From Ochromonas danica (taxonomy: Eukaryota > Sar > Chrysophyceae > Chromulinales > Chromulinaceae): DNA of 64,000 nucleotides. Below the pieces are notes generated by a model, which did not search any database, was not told the DNA's origin, and saw only the letters and a list, made by a program, of their open reading frames with translations. The DNA is taken from assembly GCA_015146655.1 (NCBI GenBank), contig VKHL01000097.1:42855-106854 (forward strand), read 5' to 3'. Positions 1-25,428 of this stretch are shown piece after piece. How positions within the stretch are numbered: the first letter of the stretch is position 1; every line of letters starts with the position of its first letter. The translations under genes and the position numbers were made by a program.

Positions 1-3000
1 TTTGATGAGATTATCTTGCTTTGCGAAGGCCACGTTATTTACCATGGTCCACGCGAGCAAATTATGGGCTACTTTGAAGCCTTGGGATATGTTTGTCCTT
101 TGGATGTAGACGAAGCAGACTTCTTGCAGGAGTTGCCCACCCCTGAAGGAAGGAGATTCATTTCTCGCCCAGACACACCACATCGAGCTGAAGATCTCGC
201 AAAAGTGTGGAAAGAGTCCTCCATATACAAGCAAATGATAGCCGAAATGCGCTATCCCGTGAATGACGAAGAAAAGGGGAAAAGCGAAACCAGCGCTCAT
301 CGACTTTCCTTGAGCAACACAAAGACATGGTATGAAGATCAATTGGAAGAGTTTCCCGCAACGTTTTGGACTTATTTTCTGCTTTGTTTGGAGCAACATT
401 TCAGCGTCATTGTTCGAGACGCTCATTTTGCGAATGCTCGTATTGGTCAGAGCTTGATCGTTGGTGCAATCACTGGTTCTCTGTTCAACAATATTGGCAA
501 AGAGGAAACCACAACAATGAACGGCTTTCTGTTCAACACTGTGCTATTCGGAGCTTTGGGTAGCTTTGCGATGCTTCCTATAGTGTATGAGCAGAAGGCA
601 GTTTTCTACAAGCAGAAAGACGCTCTGTTCTATCCAACTGGTGCCTTCACTTTGGCCCAAACGATTGCCTTGATACCATTGCAGTTGTTGGAAACCATTC
701 TCTATGTCACCATTGTTTATTGGTCAGCAGGCCTGGCTAAACAAGAGAATGGCTCCCGCTTTTTGACGTTTATGGTGCTTTGCTTTGTTTTTGCAATGTG
801 TGTTTGTCAACTATTCCGCGCAATTGCCTCAGTTCTACCCGATATGCGTGCTGCATTGCCTGTTTCGGGTGTGATAGTAGTCATCATGGTGCTCTTCAGT
901 GGCTTCATCCAGCCAAAAACAGTCATTTCGGACGGCTGGATTTGGTTTTACTGGATGAACCCGATCTCCTGGGTGTTGAAGGCTGTGACGATTAACGAGT
1001 TTTCGGCTCCACGTTATGACTTCCTGACCTGTTTAAACACTGCTTGTACTCAATCTGAGCGATATGGTGATTTTGTCTTGAAGTCTTACGGCAATCCCAC
1101 CTCAATGAAATGGATTTGGTATTCATTTGCTGTGATAATTGCCGAGTACTTCTTCTTCCTCCTCCTGACTTATCTGGCTCAGAAGTACATCCATGTGGAA
1201 CCAACGCCACCACCGCCTGTGCGCTATGAGTTGGATGAACCTGTCTTCATCCAGCCTACTTCCAGCAAAGAGGTAGTTGTGGCGGATCCAAGAGTGGTGA
1301 AACCTGTGGGAGAGGAGAACAAGGGCAACGCAGAAGAAGACCAAGAAGATGTGGAGGCTCTCGCTCCTCGCCAACACTATGGTGCCGCAAACAAGAAGTT
1401 CGAGCAATTACCCTTCGAACAAATTTCGTTTGCCTTCCAAAATATCGGTTATACGGTCACATTGCCGAGTGGAGAGGATGTAGAGCTTCTGCAGGATGTG
1501 AACGGCTTCTTCGAACCCGCGAGCATCACTGCATTGATGGGTTCCTCTGGCGCAGGCAAAACCACTCTCCTCGATGTTCTAGCTGGCAGAAAGAATACAG
1601 GTGTGGTCCGCGGAGAAATGTTCTTGAATGGCTTACCGAAAGTGGACGCCTATTTCCGTCGTATCATGGGATATGTCGAGCAATTCGACACCTTACATGC
1701 TCGATCTACTCCTCGTGAGGCAATTCAATTCAACGCGGAGCTTCGTCTCGCTTCGGACATCACCACGTGAGCTTTTAAATTTTCATTCATGCCTATTGGG
1801 TTGCCAAATCTCACATCTATGTAATGCACCGTACAACAGGGAACAGAAGAACGTTTGGGTGGATTCTATCGTCTCGATGATGGATTTGGAACCCATTCAA
1901 AATGATCTGGTGAGTGGTTTATACGCTGTATCTTGGTGATCTAACTCTGATCAAATTGATCTGTATGTTCAACCCGATCAGATTGGTTTGTCTGGAGCGG
2001 GAGGCATGAGTTTCGAACAACGCAAGCGTGTTTCTATTGGTACAGAATTGGCTGCCAATCCTTCCATCCTCTTCCTTGATGAGCCGACCACAGGATTGGA
2101 CTCTCGTGCTGCTCAAGCTTTGGTGGTAAATATCCGGCGTATTGCAGCATCTGGTCGTTCAGTTGTCTGTACTATTCATCAACCGTCCACAGCCATTTTC
2201 AATTCCTTTGACAGTCTGCTGCTGTTAAAGAAGGGAGGCAGAACTGTTTTCTTCGGTCCTTTGGGGTATCGAGGCAAGGGGTTGGTGGACTTCTTCGAAG
2301 CCATTCCTGGGGTGTCTCCCATGCCTGTGCATATGAATCCCGCCACGTGGATGTTGGATGTGATTGGTGCTGGTACTTCTGCTCAAGCCAGTCAGGTGGA
2401 TATCGATTTTGTGAGCAATTACAACTCGTCTACTCTGTGTGATGTCAGCAAGCTCAAGCTAGAGACCCTCACTCGTCCTAACAGTGCTTCGAAGAGACTC
2501 ACGGATGATGAGATTCAAGTGTTGCAAGCGGATGTATATCGCACTTCTTACCACAAGCAATTCTATCTGCTGTACAAGCGCTACTTGGTCTCTTATTGGC
2601 GTTCTCCAAGCTACAGCGTGATGAGACATGTGACCAACATTGTGATCGCTTTGATTTTCGCTTCTGCCTTTCCCTTCCAAACCTACAATGATTATATCAA
2701 AACAACTTCTCGCGCTGCAGTCATCTATATCACTGCTTTCTTTTGTGGAGTCATGGCCATGAATTTGTCTATTCCAATCACTGCAAGTGATCGCCCTGTC
2801 TACTACCACGAGCAACAAGCTCGCATGTATAGCACCTTCTTGTATACTCTGGCACAGCTGCTCACCGAGATTCCCTACCTTCTCATCGGAGCGATTTCCT
2901 TCAGCTTGCCGTTCTTTTATATTGTTGGTCTGAACAATGTGGGTGCAGTGACTCAAAAGTTCTTCTGGTTCTGGATGTTTAACTTTTTGTTGGAAGCCAC

Positions 3001-3464
3001 GATGTTGTTCTTGGGTGTGTTCTTTGTTTACTTGGCCCCTGATGAGGCAACAACTCATGTGTTCACGGGCTTAACCAATACTTTGCTGGGTCTTTTCTGC
3101 GGATTCTTGATTGCTGAACAAAACTTCCCGCCTTTCTGGAAGTTCATGTATTGGCTGGATCCTTTACATTATGCTCTGGAAGGACTCTTTGTCTCCATGT
3201 TCCACGAAGATACCACCAAGATTAAGTTGATGAATGGTGACATCACCACTGCTGAGAAATATGTTCGTCATGATTTGTTCACCACCTGGATGTATGGCCA
3301 TGTCGGTTATGATGCAATGGCCTTGGCGTTGTTCGCGGGTGGCGCAGTGTAAGTGTTTCCCTTCCTTCTTCATGATCAGCAAACCTTCTTTACCGTGCTT
3401 TCATATTCACAATAGGGTTGGAAGCTACTTGTGTTTGGCGTATTTGAACCACGATAAGCGATAG
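1..3464 (+). CDS. PDR-type ABCG transporter, copy 1 (5' end outside window)
   Basis: Predicted exons are <1-1766, 1840-1909, 1982-3348 and 3416-3464, with three GT-AG introns of 67-73 bp. The visible part starts just after the first ATP-binding domain. It holds the first membrane domain, a cytosolic linker, the second nucleotide-binding domain and the second membrane domain. NBD2 has Walker A GSSGAGKT, the linker motif MSFEQRKR and Walker B LFLDEPTTGLDS. Full-size PDR/ABCG proteins are plasma-membrane exporters of lipids and hydrophobic drugs in fungi, plants and oomycetes; the substrate here cannot be inferred. The gene is followed in the same orientation by a second copy that is identical over this whole stretch, introns included, except for one divergent patch in the first membrane domain. 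The stop is TAG after the residues NHDKR. Confidence 0.93.
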
Positions 3465-7500: not shown

Positions 7501-9213
7501 TTCGGACATCACCACGTGAGCTTTTAAATTTTCATTCATGCCTATTGGGTTGCCAAATCTCACATCTATGTAATGCACCGTACAACAGGGAACAGAAGAA
7601 CGTTTGGGTGGATTCTATCGTCTCGATGATGGATTTGGAACCCATTCAAAATGATCTGGTGAGTGGTTTATACGCTGTATCTTGGTGATCTAACTCTGAT
7701 CAAATTGATCTGTATGTTCAACCCGATCAGATTGGTTTGTCTGGAGCGGGAGGCATGAGTTTCGAACAACGCAAGCGTGTTTCTATTGGTACAGAATTGG
7801 CTGCCAATCCTTCCATCCTCTTCCTTGATGAGCCGACCACAGGATTGGACTCTCGTGCTGCTCAAGCTTTGGTGGTAAATATCCGGCGTATTGCAGCATC
7901 TGGTCGTTCAGTTGTCTGTACTATTCATCAACCGTCCACAGCCATTTTCAATTCCTTTGACAGTCTGCTGCTGTTAAAGAAGGGAGGCAGAACTGTTTTC
8001 TTCGGTCCTTTGGGGTATCGAGGCAAGGGGTTGGTGGACTTCTTCGAAGCCATTCCTGGGGTGTCTCCCATGCCTGTGCATATGAATCCCGCCACGTGGA
8101 TGTTGGATGTGATTGGTGCTGGTACTTCTGCTCAAGCCAGTCAGGTGGATATCGATTTTGTGAGCAATTACAACTCGTCTACTCTGTGTGATGTCAGCAA
8201 GCTCAAGCTAGAGACCCTCACTCGTCCTAACAGTGCTTCGAAGAGACTCACGGATGATGAGATTCAAGTGTTGCAAGCGGATGTATATCGCACTTCTTAC
8301 CACAAGCAATTCTATCTGCTGTACAAGCGCTACTTGGTCTCTTATTGGCGTTCTCCAAGCTACAGCGTGATGAGACATGTGACCAACATTGTGATCGCTT
8401 TGATTTTCGCTTCTGCCTTTCCCTTCCAAACCTACAATGATTATATCAAAACAACTTCTCGCGCTGCAGTCATCTATATCACTGCTTTCTTTTGTGGAGT
8501 CATGGCCATGAATTTGTCTATTCCAATCACTGCAAGTGATCGCCCTGTCTACTACCACGAGCAACAAGCTCGCATGTATAGCACCTTCTTGTATACTCTG
8601 GCACAGCTGCTCACCGAGATTCCCTACCTTCTCATCGGAGCGATTTCCTTCAGCTTGCCGTTCTTTTATATTGTTGGTCTGAACAATGTGGGTGCAGTGA
8701 CTCAAAAGTTCTTCTGGTTCTGGATGTTTAACTTTTTGTTGGAAGCCACGATGTTGTTCTTGGGTGTGTTCTTTGTTTACTTGGCCCCTGATGAGGCAAC
8801 AACTCATGTGTTCACGGGCTTAACCAATACTTTGCTGGGTCTTTTCTGCGGATTCTTGATTGCTGAACAAAACTTCCCGCCTTTCTGGAAGTTCATGTAT
8901 TGGCTGGATCCTTTACATTATGCTCTGGAAGGACTCTTTGTCTCCATGTTCCACGAAGATACCACCAAGATTAAGTTGATGAATGGTGACATCACCACTG
9001 CTGAGAAATATGTTCGTCATGATTTGTTCACCACCTGGATGTATGGCCATGTCGGTTATGATGCAATGGCCTTGGCGTTGTTCGCGGGTGGCGCAGTGTA
9101 AGTGTTTCCCTTCCTTCTTCATGATCAGCAAACCTTCTTTACCGTGCTTTCATATTCACAATAGGGTTGGAAGCTACTTGTGTTTGGCGTATTTGAACCA
9201 CGATAAGCGATAG
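4593..9213 (+). CDS. PDR-type ABCG transporter, copy 2 (complete)
   Basis: Five exons (4593-5115, 5190-7515, 7589-7658, 7731-9097, 9165-9213) give 1444 residues, the normal size for a full PDR protein with NBD-TMD-NBD-TMD order. NBD1 has an intact Walker A (GPPGSGKS, about residues 167-174; the first intron falls directly after it) and signature VSGGQKRR near 293. Its Walker B reads KMMDCISNGLD near 315, so the usual catalytic glutamate is a cysteine. NBD2 is complete: GSSGAGKT near 874 and LFLDEPTTGLDS near 1005. Membrane domains span about 480-755 and 1160-1430. The role is probably ATP-driven export at the plasma membrane, with NBD2 doing most of the hydrolysis, as in other asymmetric PDR proteins. 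The start is the first ATG in frame with a typical soluble N-terminus; substrate unknown. Confidence 0.95.
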
Positions 9214-14689: not shown

Positions 14690-15815
14690 ATGGCAGAAGA
14701 ATATGAAGTGCTCTATGACTGGGAGCCTGAGGTGAGCCTGTCCGCACTCTTCTTTTCTCTTTCCTACGCGCCGTTGACTGTTGGATACGCTGGGGCAGAA
14801 CCCAGAAGACCTGCGGCTCTTCGCGGGCGAGACCATCGTGGTCTTGCAGACCTATGACCACGGCTGGTGGCTGGGGTCTGTGGACCGCGAGGGAGAGGTG
14901 ATGAAGGGCTACTTCCCCAGGAATTACGTCAAGCCGCTGCCCAGGCGAGTGGCTCCCCCCGCGCCGCGCCCGCCGCCTCGCCCGCTCTCCCTCGCCGCCA
15001 CTCCCTTGGACGTGGGCAAGGTGGCTGCCTCGGTGGCTGCTCTCTCGGTGAGGGAGGAGAAGGCGGCGGCGGAGCAGGAGGAGGGCAGGGCGAGGCCTTT
15101 CTCGATCAAGTCGCTGCCCGCCTTCGACCACCTCATGGAGAAGGGCTTCTCCGTGGAGATCGACGGAGCCTCTCCCAGTGGCAGTGGCAGTGGCAGTGCA
15201 GAGAGTGAGGCAGGCCCAGTCCTCCCTCGCCGCGGCCAGGAAGTCTCTGTGGACTGCGTGGCGCTGCTGTGGGACGGCGCGCACAGCTCGGCGAAGGAGT
15301 TCACCGCGGGGCCTCTGCGCTTCAAGCTGGGCAAGCAAGCCGTGGTGCCGGGTCTCGAGGCGGCTCTCTACTCCATCCCCGTGGGGCGGTCGGCCACAGT
15401 GACGTGCTCCCCGAGCATGGCCTACGGCAGCGCCGGCTGTCCGCCTCTCGTGCCGCCCAACGCCTTCGTCGTCTTTCTGCTCACTTTGCAGGCCGTGAGA
15501 GAGCCAGACGAGGGAGAAGAAGAAGCTGTTCCCCAGGCGCCGGCGGGTATTTTCGTGTCCGATCTGCCTCAGGCGCGACGAGCTTCGCTGCAGCGCAAGA
15601 GAGACCGCCTGGTGCTATCCTCCTCCTCCTCCTCCGCTGCCCAGCAGTCTGGCTTTGCTTTCCCTGACGACGCGGCAGCTGGGACTTCTGCCTCTGGTGA
15701 TGCCTCGGCTGTGCCTCCTCCTCCTCCTCTCCCCGCCCAGCCCGCGCCTTCTCTCCCTCCCTCCCCACCTGAACAACAACTTCAAGCTGACGCCCCCGAG
15801 CCTTCAGCTGTTTAG
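14690..15815 (+). CDS. SH3 domain fused to FKBP-type isomerase domain
   Basis: Exon 1 (14690-14731) and exon 2 (14799-15815) are joined by a 67-bp intron inside the SH3 domain and give 352 residues. Residues about 4-62 form an SH3 domain: ALYDY-type start VLYDWEPE, then the aromatic GWWLGS and GYFPRNYV. Residues about 158-246 are FKBP-like: FKLGKQAVVPGLEAAL, SIPVG, AYGSAGCPPLVPPNAFVVF. Compared with FKBP12, the Tyr26, Phe36/Asp37, Phe46 and Trp59 positions look substituted while Tyr82 and Phe99 are kept, so isomerase activity may be weak or lost. The C-terminus (about 250-352) is low complexity and proline/serine-rich. A cytosolic scaffold that recruits proline-rich partners is the simplest reading. 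Confidence 0.88.
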
Positions 15816-19001: not shown

Positions 19002-20676
19002 ATGACGACTATCGCCTCCCTGCCCGAGCCCGCGAGTCACAGCTACCTTGGAGGACATCTGGAAGACGTGCGGAGCGGTGACCAGCTGGTTCCAGGCGAG
19101 GTGTACGATCTCCTGCTGCTGCCCCTCGAGGGCGTCGTGCTCTTCCCCGGCGAGACGCTTCCCCTGCGAGTGCGTCAGAGAGAACTTGTGCAGCTGCTGT
19201 CACTAGAAGGCGGCTCGCAGGCGAGAGAGGGCGTGCAGCGCGTGGGCGTGGTGGATCTGATCTGCTCGCGTGGCCGGCACTCCCTGCGCCGCCTGGGCAC
19301 CACCATAGAGGTGCGCGCGAGGGCCCCGCACATGCCGCAGCAGGAGGAGGAGGAGGAGCTGCTCTGCGTGTCGAGAGGAAAGCAGCGCTTCGAAGTGCTT
19401 TCCTTCCAGATTGGACGCGCCGTGAAGGCGAGCGTGCGTGTGCTGGAGGAAGCGCTTCCTCGCCGCCGCCATTCCTCGCTGCCCATCGCCTCCTGCTGCG
19501 ACGCCATCCCTCGCCTCGCCTACGAGGCCTGCGACCCTCACAGACTTGCTCGCAGGGCATACGACCTCGCCGTCGCCTCTCTCAGTCAACAGGTATTACC
19601 CACCTATGCCATCCCATCCCATCCCATCCTATCCCTTGCCATCTGATGTTGTCATGCAATGCGCGGCAAAGGACTTGGGCCCAGTGTGGCGGCGATGGGG
19701 TCCTCAGCCTGACGACGGCATCTACGGCGCCGAGGCCGACCCCTTGGCCTTCTCGTACTTCTTGGCAGGCAATCTGCCCGTCGCCTCCGCCGCCCTTCAC
19801 AGCCTCCTTCGCGCCTCCTCTGCCACCCATCGCCTCAGGCTGGCGATGGAGCTGTTGGTGGCAGGCCGCGAGAAGCATCTGGCTTGTGTCCGCTGCGCAC
19901 AGCGCCTGGCCTCGTGCTCTGCGCTGGTCAACGTGCCGGGGGCGGAGGGAGTGGCGGGCGCTTACGTCAATCCGCATGGCGTGGTGCATCAGACGATCAC
20001 TGTGCGCCAACTGCTGCCGCAGACTTCAATCACTCTAGAGGGCTCGGCCTGCGCCAGAGACAGTTGGTTCCCTGGCTATGCCTGGACCATTCTCTACTGC
20101 GGCAGATGTGGCAATCATCTCGGCTGGAGGTTCACGGCTCTTCGCAGACAGCAGACGGCGCGATCGCTGCGGTCAGAAGCGGAAGAAGAGCGCCTGAGAG
20201 ATCGCCTTGTCTTGGATTGGCTGCAGAGCGCGGGATTGACTCCCGAGGCTTTGTCTTCTGTCCGCGCGGGATCTTTCATCGAACAGACGCGACAGGCTGT
20301 AATGGAAATCATGCAGTCTTCCTCACTTCCAACAACGGAGGATGACCACGAGGAAGAGGAGGAGGAGGAGGAGCAAGAAGGGGAAATGAGTGAGTCCCAC
20401 ACTGTGGACACTGAGGACGAGCACTCTGTCTGGGAAGATGTTGACGATGACCACACACATTCAGATAACTCGGTGGATGATGACGATGATGACCACACGC
20501 ATTCAGAGCCTTCTCTCATGACTGCAGCGGTAGAGGAGGGTCAGCAAGCCTCCAGCCTGGTCGAGTTCTGGTGAGTCAGTCTTTCCTTCTTCCCGCTGCT
20601 TCTGTCGCTCTGAAGTGCTAACACAGCATGTTGTCTTGCCAGGGGTCTTCGTCGAGCTGCTCTCACCGAGGTCTAG
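19002..20676 (+). CDS. CRBN: Cereblon (LON + CULT domains)
   Basis: Three exons (19002-19592, 19672-20570, 20643-20676) give 507 residues. The LON-like domain spans about 35-200, beginning LLLLPLEGVVLFPGETLPL. The CULT domain follows, with zinc pairs CVRC (near 266) and CGRC (near 340), AYVNPHG, and the ligand cage SWFPGYAWT plus GWRF, so all three cage tryptophans are kept. The residue after AWT is isoleucine, matching the mouse rather than the human drug-site residue. Human His378 appears to be Asp here. The final helix motif FWGLRRAAL is encoded across intron 2 into a tiny last exon, yet it is separated from GWRF by about 140 mostly acidic residues that are absent from animal proteins. Cereblon is a substrate receptor of CRL4 ubiquitin ligases. 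Confidence 0.95.
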
Positions 20677-21765
20677 AGCTTCTTGTTGCCTGAGAGGTTG
20701 ACCAACCATTGGCCATCACTGTTGGCCTTCACCATCTACATCAGAGACATCAGAGACAGACAGAGAGGTCTGGCATTGCTTGACTACACATCGCAACACT
20801 TCTCCCAGTCTAACTGTGCGAGGAAGAGAAGAGTAACGGGGAAATGCAACACTAGCTTTGGCTATGGACAACATAACAACACTGTTACTGCTAACACTGT
20901 TACTGCTAACACTGTTAGTGCAGCAACTGGTACAGTACAGTACAGCATGCAGCATACTGAAGAGGCTCTGTCAGATATGACTGTGTAGCATCATGGCCCT
21001 GCTGCTCCCAATCCTGCCTAATCATATCTACTGGTCTAGTCTAGTCTAGTACTGTACTGTCTATACTGAGCAGGAGAACAAAGAGCGTGCAGTCTACACA
21101 AACTAGTAATGATTCTTTCTTATAATATCATCATCTTTGTGACCTCTCGCATAGAAGATGGGAGCGATGAAGATCCCCGCTAGTTATGTTACATGCTCAT
21201 AGGTGAACAATTCAAATTGATGGACAATGCACTAGACCACCAGACCACAGACATGATATGATATGTCAGATGTCAGACATTGTACATTGTGCCATAGTGT
21301 TCTAAACTGCCTCATATTGACAATCGTTTCCATCGACGACATGTTCCTCACAGCGAAGTTTGAACATTCCCCGGCAAAGACCCCACACACGACAACCTTC
21401 TTACTTGCTTGAACAATTGAACAACACTTAGACAGCCTGGGAAAAGCTTTTGCTACTCTGCTGGTACTACTACTCTGACTCTACTGCTACTACAACTAGA
21501 CTATCAATAGAAGTTAACTAGTTACGCAGCAGGAGACACCAAACATATTGTTGTGTTGCGTGTGGATCGAAAGCCGTCTAGTTTGATTTATTTCTCAGGA
21601 AATGAGACTTTTCCTCAGCACATCTTCTTCAAGCACATTGTTCTGCTGCATTGTGAAAGATTCCTGCCCTTCACTTCTTCACAATCAAATCAATCGCCAG
21701 CCAGCCAGTCCCACTGCCTTTGGCTGCCTTGACTGTTGAACACTACTCACACTAGCTTAAAGAAG
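20677..21765. other. Intergenic region, no gene seen
   Basis: This stretch is 1.1 kb with stop-rich frames. Small tandem repeats include (CACTGTTACTGCTAA)-type units at about 20878-20920 and CTAGT runs near 21035. The right end should contain the promoter of the aldo-keto reductase. Confidence 0.6.
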
Positions 21766-22864
21766 ATGCCACTTGTTCCTCAACGCCCCCTGGGATCTCA
21801 AGGCCTCGTCGTCTCTGCGCAAGGACTGTAAGTAATATCAGAATCTGATGATGGCAGACAACTTGATGACATGGCTTCAACACTAAACTTGTCGTAGAGG
21901 CGCGATGGGAATGACTGCTTTCTACGGAGACTTTGACCGCGATGCCCAAGAGCCTGAGTCTCTGCGCACGATCGCCAAGGCGCTGGAGCTGGGCATCAAC
22001 TTCATCGACACGGCGTGGATCTACCAGAACTTCTCCAACGGCAAGCTCTACACCAACGAAGAGCTCGTTGGCAAGGCTATTGCTATCCATGGACGAGAGA
22101 AGTTCATCATCGCGACCAAGTTCGGCATCGCCGTGGATGCGCAAGGCGTGCGAACCATTTCCGGCAAAGAAGAAACCATTCGCTCGCAGCTGGCGGACTC
22201 CCTTCGCCGACTGGGCACTGACTACATTGACCTCTACTACATGCACCGCATGGATCCCAGCACCCCTATCGAAGAGACGATGGCAGTGCTGAAGTCCTTG
22301 GTGGCGGAGGGGAAGATCCGCTATGTGGGTCTGTCGGAATGCACACCCAGCGAACTGCGCCGAGCCCATGCTGTGCATCCCATCACTGCTGTCCAGATGG
22401 AGTGGAGCTTGCAGAGCCGTGATATCGAAGACAGCGTGGTACCAACAGCTCGAGAGCTTGGCGTGGCGATTGTCCCTTACTCTCCCTTGGGCAGAGGATT
22501 CTTGGCAGACCTCGCCACTTTCGACAACCTCGGCACCACTGACTACCGCCGATTGGGCCCTCGTTTCTCAGGAGATGCTCTCGATGAGAATAGAAAGCGA
22601 GTCGCTCGTTTCTACGAGCTAGCTCGCGAGAAAAGCTGCACTCCTGCCCAACTGGCGCTCGCCTGGGTACACAGTCGAGGAGAGGATGTCTTCCCCATTC
22701 CTGGCACCAAATCTGCCAGTCGGCTGGAGGAGAACGCCAAGGCCATCACGGAGGTGCTTCCCAGACTGACCGCAGAGGATCTGTTGGCGATCGAGAGTTC
22801 TGTAGAGACCTTGGTTGGCGCTCGATATGCTGGAAATGCTGGCACATTCAATGAACGTCTCTGA
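21766..22864 (+). CDS. Aldo-keto reductase (AKR13/YakC-like)
   Basis: Exons 21766-21827 and 21898-22864 give 342 residues. The intron splits the GLGAMGMTAFYG motif, and joining restores it exactly. The catalytic tetrad is visible: Asp and Tyr in FIDTAWIYQ, Lys in IIATKFGI and His in YYMHRMDP. The C-terminal cofactor-binding part has VPYSPLGRGFL and PIPGTKSASRLEEN, typical of NADPH-dependent perakine reductase/YakC-type enzymes. The expected reaction is reduction of aldehydes or ketones in the cytosol; the substrate is not predictable. No targeting signal is visible. Confidence 0.93.
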
Positions 22865-23217
22865 AGACGCAGCTCTGAATGAATCGCTTTGATTGTGCTA
22901 GTAGTACAATCAGCATGCATCTTGTAATTAATGACAGTGACTGTTGGAACCAAAGTCAGTCTTATTAAGGGAATCACATTAGTTTACTCACGACCCAGCT
23001 AGTCAGTGTGCAGACAGGAGACTGCACAATGTAAGGAGGTGATAGAGGACGACTGTTCGGCAAGCATGGGCTGGGCCAGTACGGAGTATGTCAGTCAGAG
23101 ACAAAAAGGATAGTGTATTGTATGCTGAAGGCTTACATCTACTCATGATATCGATAAATATATAGGACAAGTTGCTTTGGGTGTGTGGTAGTAGCTATAT
23201 ACAATGTAACGAGTTGA
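22865..23217. other. Convergent intergenic gap, nothing seen
   Basis: These 353 bp lie between two converging stop codons. They are AT-rich, with no open frame or clear repeat; both 3' untranslated regions must lie here. Confidence 0.55.
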
Positions 23218-25428
23218 TTAAACGAGGTCTGCCAGGCGATTGCCGTCTACAGTGGTACCATTGCCGGAGTCTTCATCACTATCCTCACCCTCACTCTCAC
23301 TGTCAGTGAACAAACCTGAATGTGACGCCTTGCGAGACCCTTCATGCATAAGTTCCATCTGCCTCATACCATCTGTTGCGGGCATATGAGCCGACTCAGA
23401 GTTAGAAGAGGGGATGGGATGGTTTGTGCTTTGGCTTTCGGCTGTAGTACAGGACAAGAGAGAAGAAGAAAAGGATTGGGAAGGCGTCAGTGGAGAAGAT
23501 AAGAAGGGCTGAGACAGAGGTGGTGGTGGAAACTGAGAATAGGTCATCGCAGCGCCAGAAGGTGTCTCAGTAGAAGGAGCAACAGGAAGAGGAGCGGTCA
23601 TGCCAACGGGTTGACCCAACACCATCGTCAAGAGGGAAGGATTCACAGGAGAGCCCCACGACACATCATTGATGTCATCTTGATCAATGCTGCTTTCCAT
23701 TTGACCATCGCTACTGCTGCCACTGCCAGTGGACGCATCGTCCGCATTAACAATGGCATCATCAGCCGCCGCAGACTCCTCCTCTTCCTCGGACATTTCC
23801 TCTTGGTCCTCCTCATCTTCATCTTCTTCCACTTCTGCTTCGCTGCTACTCTCATCCTCCTCGACCCCTTCTTCCATATCACTCGACATCCAGGGATGAG
23901 CATAAACCTGTTCTCGACGATTCCGCAGCATCACCATCTGCACATTGCATTGGTAGAGCAGGACAGTCAGTCCAGAAACACTCTCCAACAGAAGCGAGAG
24001 AAAAGATAGTGATGAGTATCGATTATACCCTGAAGATATCTCGCTCGCGCTCAGCAATCCTACGAGCAGATTCGGCAACACGCAAGCGCTCCTCGGCTCT
24101 CTGCCTCAAAAAGCGTTCAGCCAGCAGCTCAGCGCGAAGAGCTAGAACTTCATCTTTAACAACAAACCAATCTCTAAACCAAGTCAAACAGCCAAGTCAC
24201 CCCAGAACTGCACAAGATAGCTAACACATGATACCTGGTTGTATAGGACAGGATGTGAAACCATACGGGGGTAGGCAACAACGAGCACAAAGGTCTCCCT
24301 CTTAGAAGTTCGTGACTATCACGATGACTCTTCACTTCAGGGTAGCGGTTGGCAGCGCATAATAACATTAAAACGACTTCTTGGAATGCCTTCGGGAACT
24401 GCTTGTGACGGGAATAGACAGGCGCCCAAACAACAGCAGGTAAGGTGATGGCTCGATTGTTTCTTCTCGAGGAAGAGTTAGACGAAGAAGCTGAGGAAGT
24501 TGTGGAGGCAGTCAAGGAGTCGTTAGGAGAAGAGGCGTAAGAGTTCACACCAGTTCTTCGACGCACTGATCGCACGACAACCAAGTGATCTCGCTCTTGC
24601 TCAAAGATCTCCTCCAAGGAAGAAATGTTAGAAGGGCTTTCCTCAACAACCTCCAACACATCTTGTCCAGCTTCGGTTCCAAGCAAAGGGGCAAAGTGAA
24701 CGTGAGAGATCAAACGAGAGGTGAAGACTTGGCCGTAGAGCTTTCGAACTGTGACCATCTCATTCGTTTCATTGATAGGCACAACCAAGATACCATTGTC
24801 GGCGAGAAGGTGAAAGAAAAACTCTTTGCGTTCTTCAGGACAGCCTGCCCCGACATAGATTCTGTCGTAATGTTGACAAGTGGTCGGGTCCAAGTCGAAG
24901 CAGTTGCCATGAACAATAGCAATGCCATGATCAACAGAACCATTCTTAACATCGAGAGGATAGGTCTTTTTCATCCAGGCATCGACACAGGCCTCGCTGT
25001 GAGACGCGGCGATGGCGGATATCTCCACGCCATGGTTGACGGCATGGCGGCCCAAGAGGCATGAGGCCAAGCAGCAGAGGTAGCCAGAGCCACTGCCAAT
25101 GTTTAAGAAAGAAAGGCCTTGATCGAGCTCCAAGGCATTCAAGACGGTAGCGTACATGTGGGGTGCAGATATGTGGATGCTCCCTCGCTTGAAGGGGCGG
25201 TCCAGGTAAATGATCGATCTGCTCGCCATGGCGCACAGAATCCTTAAGAAAAGGAAAGAGAGCAAGGAAATTACAGGTGAAACAATACCTGTCCTCTGGA
25301 GTGACGAAATCTCCTCTGTCAGTGCGCAGAAAGGCATTTAGAACAGGTCCAGGAGAGAGAACACCATGCAACGTCATCTTCTCGCAGAGTTCTTCATTGG
25401 AATTGCCCACGCTGAGCCAAGCCATCAC
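23218..25428 (-). CDS. PIMT/PCMTD-like methyltransferase with F-box-like motif
   Basis: Four exons read from 25428 (25428-25289, 25242-24235, 24173-24029, 23937-23218) give 670 residues. The first intron is only 46 bp. Residues about 60-270 are an isoaspartyl methyltransferase domain with family motifs SIHISAPHMYATVL and the SAM loop FLNIGSGSGYL. The layout is closest to PCMTD1/2, the variants tied to Elongin-type ubiquitin ligases. Near 355-390, created by joining exons 2 and 3, is an F-box-like helix (LLPTPVWFHILSYTTRDWF). A charged coiled coil follows (about 390-435), then a strongly acidic stretch (445-500) and a disordered tail. I infer a SCF-type receptor that recognises isoaspartate-damaged proteins; whether it methylates is open. 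Confidence 0.82.

What the first reader, a model, noticed from the sequence alone, without database searches (positions are those of the whole stretch)
19002..25428. Cereblon and a PIMT/F-box protein one gene apart: a possible protein-damage ubiquitination locus
Cereblon's natural degrons include C-terminal cyclic imides formed when Asn/Gln residues break down. PIMT-family proteins recognise isoaspartate, which forms through the related succinimide. In this window a full cereblon (19.0-20.7 kb) and a PIMT-type domain joined to an F-box-like motif (23.2-25.4 kb) are separated only by an aldo-keto reductase. Both would feed cullin ligases (CRL4 and SCF). The families and their chemistry are established knowledge; the functional link is inference, and physical proximity in eukaryotes may be chance.
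Basis: partly seen in the sequence, partly recalled or inferred. Interest (0 to 1): 0.72.

Follow-up and report, generated by a model that had tools for sequence, protein, structure and literature searches.

The report
Cereblon near a PCMTD-type methyltransferase gene
Two genes related to how cells handle chemically damaged proteins sit close together in a small eukaryote genome; both are real, but the claimed F-box is not supported and nothing yet shows that their closeness is more than chance.

Summary
The first (19002-20676, +) is a 507-aa cereblon with the CULT pocket residues intact; the genome also has DDB1 and CUL4-type genes. The second (25425-23218, minus strand, four exons, 669 aa) carries a PCMT domain whose nearest solved relative is human PCMTD1, not plain PIMT. 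In the PDB, PCMTD1 is solved with Cullin-5, and a paper names PCMTD proteins SOCS-box receptors of CUL5. A SOCS box is not detectable either, so the cullin attachment is open. The chemical link between PIMT and cereblon is already published for human PCMT1. Here the PCMTD-type protein is the only gene found with the PCMT1-like ISAPHM motif; the genome's other PIMT is bacterial-type, on another contig. Gene order in other eukaryotes could not be tested. In bacteria, a PIMT lay near a CULT gene in 2 of 24 loci, and in 1 of 20 after dropping the four loci that raised the idea. Verdict: real, mostly ordinary genes; linkage unproven.

The parts
19002..20676 (+). Cereblon gene, 507 aa; exons 19002-19592, 19672-20570, 20643-20676
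   Evidence: Splice model with GT-AG introns; PDB cereblon E 6.3e-33, covering LON-type and CULT parts; on the unspliced ORFs Pfam LON_substr_bdg E 6e-5 (below its curated cut-off) and Yippee-Mis18 E 2.9e-6 (above it)
19873..20160 (+). CULT (imide-binding) domain, about residues 265-360: three cage tryptophans and four zinc cysteines present
   Evidence: W60, W66, W80, C5, C8, C71, C74 invariant over window and four bacterial CULT proteins (their roles in the pocket are recalled); residues 217-360 align to PDB cereblon
21766..22864 (+). Aldo-keto reductase gene between the two, 342 aa; exons 21766-21827, 21898-22864
   Evidence: Pfam Aldo_ket_red E 5.9e-72 on the main ORF; splice model
23218..25425 (-). 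PCMTD-type gene, 669 aa; exons 25425-25289, 25242-24235, 24173-24029, 23937-23218
   Evidence: Splice model, three GT-AG introns of 46, 61 and 91 nt; PDB best match human PCMTD1 (9oma) E 1.7e-30, next best Drosophila PIMT (1r18, organism recalled) 2.2e-14
24675..25401 (-). PCMT methyltransferase domain (residues 9-235), with ISAPHM motif as in plain PIMTs
   Evidence: Pfam PCMT E 1.8e-21; ISAPHM aligned with the PIMTs of 1r18 and 2pbf, LSAPCI in PCMTD1
24243..24278 (-). LPTPVWFHILSY (residues 368-379): the stretch read as an F-box; matches only the first helix of an F-box, also has the LPxP form of a SOCS Cul-box
   Evidence: Aligned part of the local F-box model; only LPxP in the protein; no Pfam family at E<=10

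Best explanation
The stretch holds two independent, conserved eukaryotic genes that happen to be near each other. One makes cereblon, the substrate receptor of a CUL4-DDB1 ubiquitin ligase that reads C-terminal cyclic imides. The other makes a PCMTD-family protein: an AdoMet-binding PIMT-like domain that recognises or modifies damaged Asp/Asn sites, with a C-terminal extension that most likely ties it to a ubiquitin ligase as in human PCMTD1/2, though by a contact not identified here. Shown: gene models, domain identities, the PCMTD1 affinity, intact cereblon pocket residues, and DDB1-, CUL4-, CUL3-, Elongin C- and Skp1-type genes in the genome. Inferred: AdoMet binding, ligase attachment of the second protein, its substrates, and that the adjacency has no function.
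For: CRBN to PDB cereblon 6.3e-33; CULT residues invariant; DDB1 E 2.8e-61, CUL4B E 3.7e-52, CUL3 E 8.4e-100, Elongin C E 6.3e-29 in the same genome. PCMT domain groups with PCMTD1 at 100/99 support and 36% identity in an 11-row tree; PDB E 1.7e-30 for PCMTD1 against 2.2e-14 for the next PIMT. PCMTD1 entry 9oma also contains Cullin-5. PCMTD2 and PCMTD1 with CUL5: PMC10798966 passages. PIMT found near CULT in only 2 of 24 bacterial loci. The two genes point towards each other with a third gene between, which does not favour a shared promoter.
Against: No BC-box by the strict pattern and no significant alignment of the C-terminal part to the PCMTD1 BC-box or Cul-box, so attachment to a ligase is not shown. 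None of the four cullins classified has CUL5 or CUL2 as best PDB match. The tree has few rows and long branches, PCMTD1's own the longest at 4.97. For the specific pair, close spacing is rare: about 4 in 10,000 if this 31.2-Mb genome has some 10,000 genes, an estimate from 20-25 genes that I count by eye in the 64-kb window, not a gene count.
Confidence: 0.68

Rival explanations
1. Writer-reader pair: the PCMTD-type protein methylates C-terminal Asn/Asp (or isoaspartate) and so makes or clears the cyclic-imide mark that the neighbouring cereblon reads, and the genes stay together for that reason.
For: [quoted passage not shown] PMC13001092 passages). The window protein keeps ISAPHM like plain PIMTs and is the only gene of that type found in the genome: the PF01135 search gave this gene, one bacterial-type PIMT on contig C6 and three matches at E 2e-4 to 5e-4 that pass the curated cut-off but carry no ISAPHM and look by eye like other methyltransferases; a search with the protein itself found only itself.
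Against: It groups with PCMTD1, which does not appear to have L-isoaspartyl methyltransferase activity (PMC10798966 passages). A bacterial-type PIMT is elsewhere in the genome. An unrelated reductase gene lies between and the genes are on opposite strands. No linkage in most bacterial loci.
Confidence: 0.07
2. PIMT/F-box fusion: the second protein is an SCF receptor.
For: Residues 368-379 align with the first helix of F-boxes from this genome; the segment scores 6.5 bits, reached by 1 of 500 shuffles. Two Skp1-type genes are present: PF03931 matches L030 and L031, told from Elongin C by eye.
Against: No Pfam F-box at E<=10 on the spliced protein; not among the 28 places listed at E<=1 in its genome; scores below all 13 real F-boxes tested; the second half of the motif does not fit; the closest relative is a SOCS-box protein.
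Confidence: 0.1
3. The second protein has no ligase attachment and is a free PIMT-like enzyme with a disordered acidic and serine-rich tail.
For: Neither F-box nor SOCS box is detected; residues after about 430 are acidic and serine-rich by eye.
Against: An LPxP motif and a hydrophobic stretch before it (residues 335-379) lie where an adaptor-binding element could sit; such motifs are weak and easily missed.
Confidence: 0.15

Closest known systems
Cereblon (CRBN), CRL4 substrate receptor
   Same: LON-type part plus CULT domain with the tryptophan cage and zinc cysteines; ends in FWGL..AL, as I recall for human CRBN (recalled, not from a call)
   Different: About 135 residues, largely acidic towards their end, between the CULT domain (to about residue 360) and the C-terminal FWGL at 496
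PCMTD1 / PCMTD2 (human), CUL5-Elongin BC substrate receptors
   Same: PCMT domain, 36% identical to PCMTD1 over 210 columns, best PDB match; C-terminal extension after the domain
   Different: No BC-box or Cul-box found; ISAPHM instead of LSAPCI; extension of about 430 residues, against about 135 in the 358-residue PCMTD1 chain
PCMT1 / PIMT repair enzyme
   Same: Fold family by Pfam PCMT; MAW.SVG start and ISAPHM motif shared with PIMT 1r18
   Different: Falls with PCMTD1 in the tree, has an insert after DRGDF and a long extension
F-box proteins (SCF receptors)
   Same: LPxxxxxxILSY, first helix only
   Different: No family-level match, second half absent

Membership tests
Cereblon | CULT domain with three Trp and four zinc Cys | tested here: met
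   Invariant in alignment A1 of 5 rows; PDB cereblon match 6.3e-33
Cereblon | LON-like N-terminal domain | tested here: met
   Residues 10-150 align to PDB cereblon domain 1, 18.8 bits; Pfam LON E 6e-5, 23.5 bits, under the curated cut-off of 28.7: weak on its own, carried by the PDB alignment
Cereblon | Partner DDB1 and CUL4 genes in the genome | tested here: met
   DDB1 E 2.8e-61; CUL4B E 3.7e-52
Cereblon | Binds DDB1 and cyclic imides | not testable with these tools
   Needs binding assays
PCMTD1/2 | PCMT domain closer to PCMTD than to PIMT | tested here: met
   11-row tree, long branches
PCMTD1/2 | C-terminal SOCS box (BC-box plus Cul-box) | tested here: not met
   No strict BC-box; alignments of residues 236-430 to the PCMTD1 Cul-box and BC-box no better than shuffles (713 and 1848 of 2000 as good), and the best Cul-box alignment is not at the LPTP motif; PF07525 has no match over its cut-off in the genome and its one weak match is elsewhere
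PCMTD1/2 | Elongin C and a CUL5-type cullin available | tested here: inconclusive
   Elongin C present, 6.3e-29; of four cullins classified, best PDB matches were CUL3, CUL4B, CUL4A (weak, divergent) and CUL3/CUL1; the PF00888 places on C182, C79, C11 and C1 were not classified
PIMT (PCMT1) | Catalytic Ser in the ISAPHM motif (PCMT1 S60, inactive as S60A in PMC11974815) | tested here: met
   ISAPHM aligned with the PIMTs of 1r18 and 2pbf; that S60 is this serine is recalled
PIMT (PCMT1) | L-isoaspartyl methyltransferase activity | not testable with these tools
   Needs an enzyme assay
F-box protein | F-box domain by HMM | tested here: not met
F-box protein | SKP1 binding | not testable with these tools
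   Needs a pull-down

The most novel reading that the evidence does not exclude
In this lineage the PCMTD-type protein, which kept the PIMT-like ISAPHM motif and is the only PCMT1-like gene found, makes or senses the cyclic-imide mark and hands substrates to the neighbouring cereblon. The pair would be a selected writer-reader locus for protein damage, and PCMTD proteins would owe their ligase tie to this older role.
Probability: 0.05. Interest if true: 0.75.

Novelty: new member of a known kind. Interest (0 to 1): 0.3.

Why it matters
Natural substrates of PCMTD proteins are little known, and human PCMTD1 is reported not to show isoaspartyl methyltransferase activity (PMC10798966 passages). 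A relative that keeps plain-PIMT motifs in an organism with an intact cereblon could be used to ask whether PCMTD proteins once wrote or read the mark that cereblon acts on. That needs biochemistry; gene closeness alone does not show it.

Tried and rejected
F-box reading: tested with Pfam on the spliced protein, PF12937 over the whole own genome, and a model of 13 of the 14 places over the PF12937 cut-off, with leave-one-out and 500 shuffles (447 of which got a score); rejected as a domain claim.

SOCS-box reading: PF07525 over the own genome, BC-box patterns and local alignment to the PCMTD1 boxes; not supported. Two loose-pattern BC-box hits at residues 47 and 100 lie inside the methyltransferase domain and were set aside.

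Other copies of the C-terminal segment in the genome: only itself.

Viral contigs: no relatives of cereblon or of the PCMTD exon.

Structure prediction of exon 2 alone, single sequence: mean pLDDT 35.1, too poor to use; no fold search was run on it.

CULT-PIMT linkage in bacteria: four CULT loci from genome contigs, one (L010) with a PIMT about 4.5 kb away. Enlarged with 20 new loci, from the 21 of 398 genomes in the phylum of G002 (the Methylococcaceae genome of L011, itself the twenty-first) that matched: PIMT within the fetched stretch in 2 of 24 loci, L010 and L105 (8.5 kb away). At 7 PIMTs in 17.4 Mb and 359,168 bases examined I expect 0.14, so 2 looks high (Poisson 0.0095). Without the four loci that suggested the test it is 1 in 20 with 0.13 expected (0.12). 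Many contigs ended early: 11 of the 20 new loci had the full 20 kb. Only two PIMT queries were used at E<=1e-4. Rejected as evidence of linkage.

Full report
What is there. The window lies in contig C97 of a 31.2-Mb, 337-contig genome; the cullins, Elongin C and introns make it a eukaryote. The organism could not be named: seven tries at a ribosomal RNA search did not complete.

Cereblon. Three exons (19002-19592, 19672-20570, 20643-20676, +) give 507 residues. PDB cereblon chains match at E 6.3e-33, with both the LON-type part (18.8 bits) and the CULT part (96.9 bits) aligned. On the unspliced ORFs Pfam gives LON at E 6e-5, under its cut-off, and Yippee-Mis18 at 2.9e-6, over it. The tryptophans and zinc cysteines of the imide pocket are invariant across this protein and four bacterial CULT proteins. 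The genome holds DDB1 (E 2.8e-61), CUL4 (E 3.7e-52) and CUL3 (E 8.4e-100) genes. PF03226 finds only one other place, on C56, not further examined. I take this as a working CRL4 receptor; that it works is inferred.

The second gene. It lies on the minus strand, four exons from 25425 to 23218, 669 residues. Residues 9-235 match Pfam PCMT at E 1.8e-21. The best PDB match is human PCMTD1 (9oma, E 1.7e-30); the PIMT of 1r18 (Drosophila, recalled) is next at 2.2e-14. In a tree of 11 rows the window protein pairs with PCMTD1 at 100/99 support, 36% identity over 210 columns; branches are long, PCMTD1's above all, so this is good but not strong evidence. Unlike PCMTD1 it keeps ISAPHM as in the PIMTs of 1r18 and 2pbf, and its start resembles that of 1r18.

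The motif. No F-box family reaches E 10 on the spliced protein or on a 100-residue piece (HMMER's filters drop most matches above about 0.1). Over the whole genome, PF12937 lists 28 places at E<=1 and this is not one, though an intron cuts the site there. A model of 13 F-boxes from this genome gives 6.5 bits for the segment and 1.8 for the whole protein; each of the 13, left out in turn, gives 13.0-32.9; 1 of 500 shuffles of the segment reaches 6.5. Only LPTPVWFHILSY aligns. The LPxP at residue 368 also fits the start of a SOCS Cul-box, as in PCMTD1 (its C-terminus checked), but local alignment to that box is no better than shuffles (713 of 2000 as good) and does not fall on the LPTP; the BC-box does no better (1848 of 2000), and no strict BC-box exists. 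PF07525 has no match over its cut-off anywhere in the genome. The attachment to a ligase is therefore unknown. Elongin C is present (E 6.3e-29). Of the four cullins classified, none has CUL5 or CUL2 as best match; other PF00888 places (C182, C79, C11, C1) were not classified.

What is known. [quoted passage not shown] that cited paper is not held. PDB 9oma holds PCMTD1 with Cullin-5. PMC11974815 (passages) reports that PCMT1 acts on C-terminal asparagine to promote the cyclic imide that CRBN reads, and that the S60A mutant does not; it cites Zhao et al. (doi 10.1038/s41589-025-02106-9), not held. PMC13001092 (passages) also says that PCMT1 generates these aspartimides. Among the titles and abstract starts listed in searches (for 9, 29 and 35 only part of the hits was listed: 20 of 53, 40 of 98, 15 of 18) I saw none that describes a CRBN-PCMTD gene neighbourhood; one search returned nothing.

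Is the closeness meaningful? The genes are on opposite strands, end to end, with an aldo-keto reductase between. GC at third positions differs: 0.713, 0.644, 0.519. No eukaryotic collection was on hand. As a stand-in I asked whether bacterial CULT genes sit near PIMT genes. In the first four loci one did (L010). Enlarging to 24 loci gave two. Against 0.14 expected this looks high (Poisson 0.0095), but leaving out the four loci that raised the question it is 1 of 20 against 0.13 (0.12). I do not count it as support.

The genome's own PIMTs. PF01135 gives five matches: this gene, a bacterial-type PIMT on C6 (E 1.7e-56), and three at E 2e-4 to 5e-4, over the curated cut-off. The three carry no ISAPHM in the fetched stretches and by eye look like other methyltransferases. 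The window protein itself finds only itself. So this is the only gene found here with the eukaryotic PCMT1-like motif, which keeps the writer-reader idea alive, at low odds.

Verdict. The genes are real, the F-box is not supported, the second gene is better called PCMTD-type, and the functional locus is unproven.

Noticed in passing
window 1988-3352 and 7737-9101 (+): Two PDR-type ABC transporter ORFs are 100% identical over 1365 bases: a very recent tandem duplication or an assembly artefact.
   Followed up: partly
L010 2773-3750 and 8154-8582: In a Syntrophobacteraceae MAG a PIMT gene lies about 4.5 kb upstream of a small CULT protein on the same strand; uncommon among bacterial CULT loci (2 of 24 with a PIMT).
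   Followed up: yes
genomes of the phylum of G002: 21 of 398 genomes carry a CULT-domain match at E<=1e-6, in open frames of 135-316 aa; the role of bacterial CULT proteins is unknown to me.
   Followed up: no
G000:C41 (L018, L023) and C182 (L020, L022): Two cullin genes that look alike by eye and are divergent: the N-terminal part of the C41 copy matches PDB cullins only weakly (best E 1.1e-13). Possibly a lineage-specific cullin pair; its adaptor is unknown.
   Followed up: partly
window 14781-15815 (+): ORF joining an SH3 domain to an FKBP-type prolyl isomerase.
   Followed up: no
window 18-22 kb: GC falls from 0.60 (18-20 kb) to 0.49 (20-22 kb) just after the cereblon gene.
   Followed up: no
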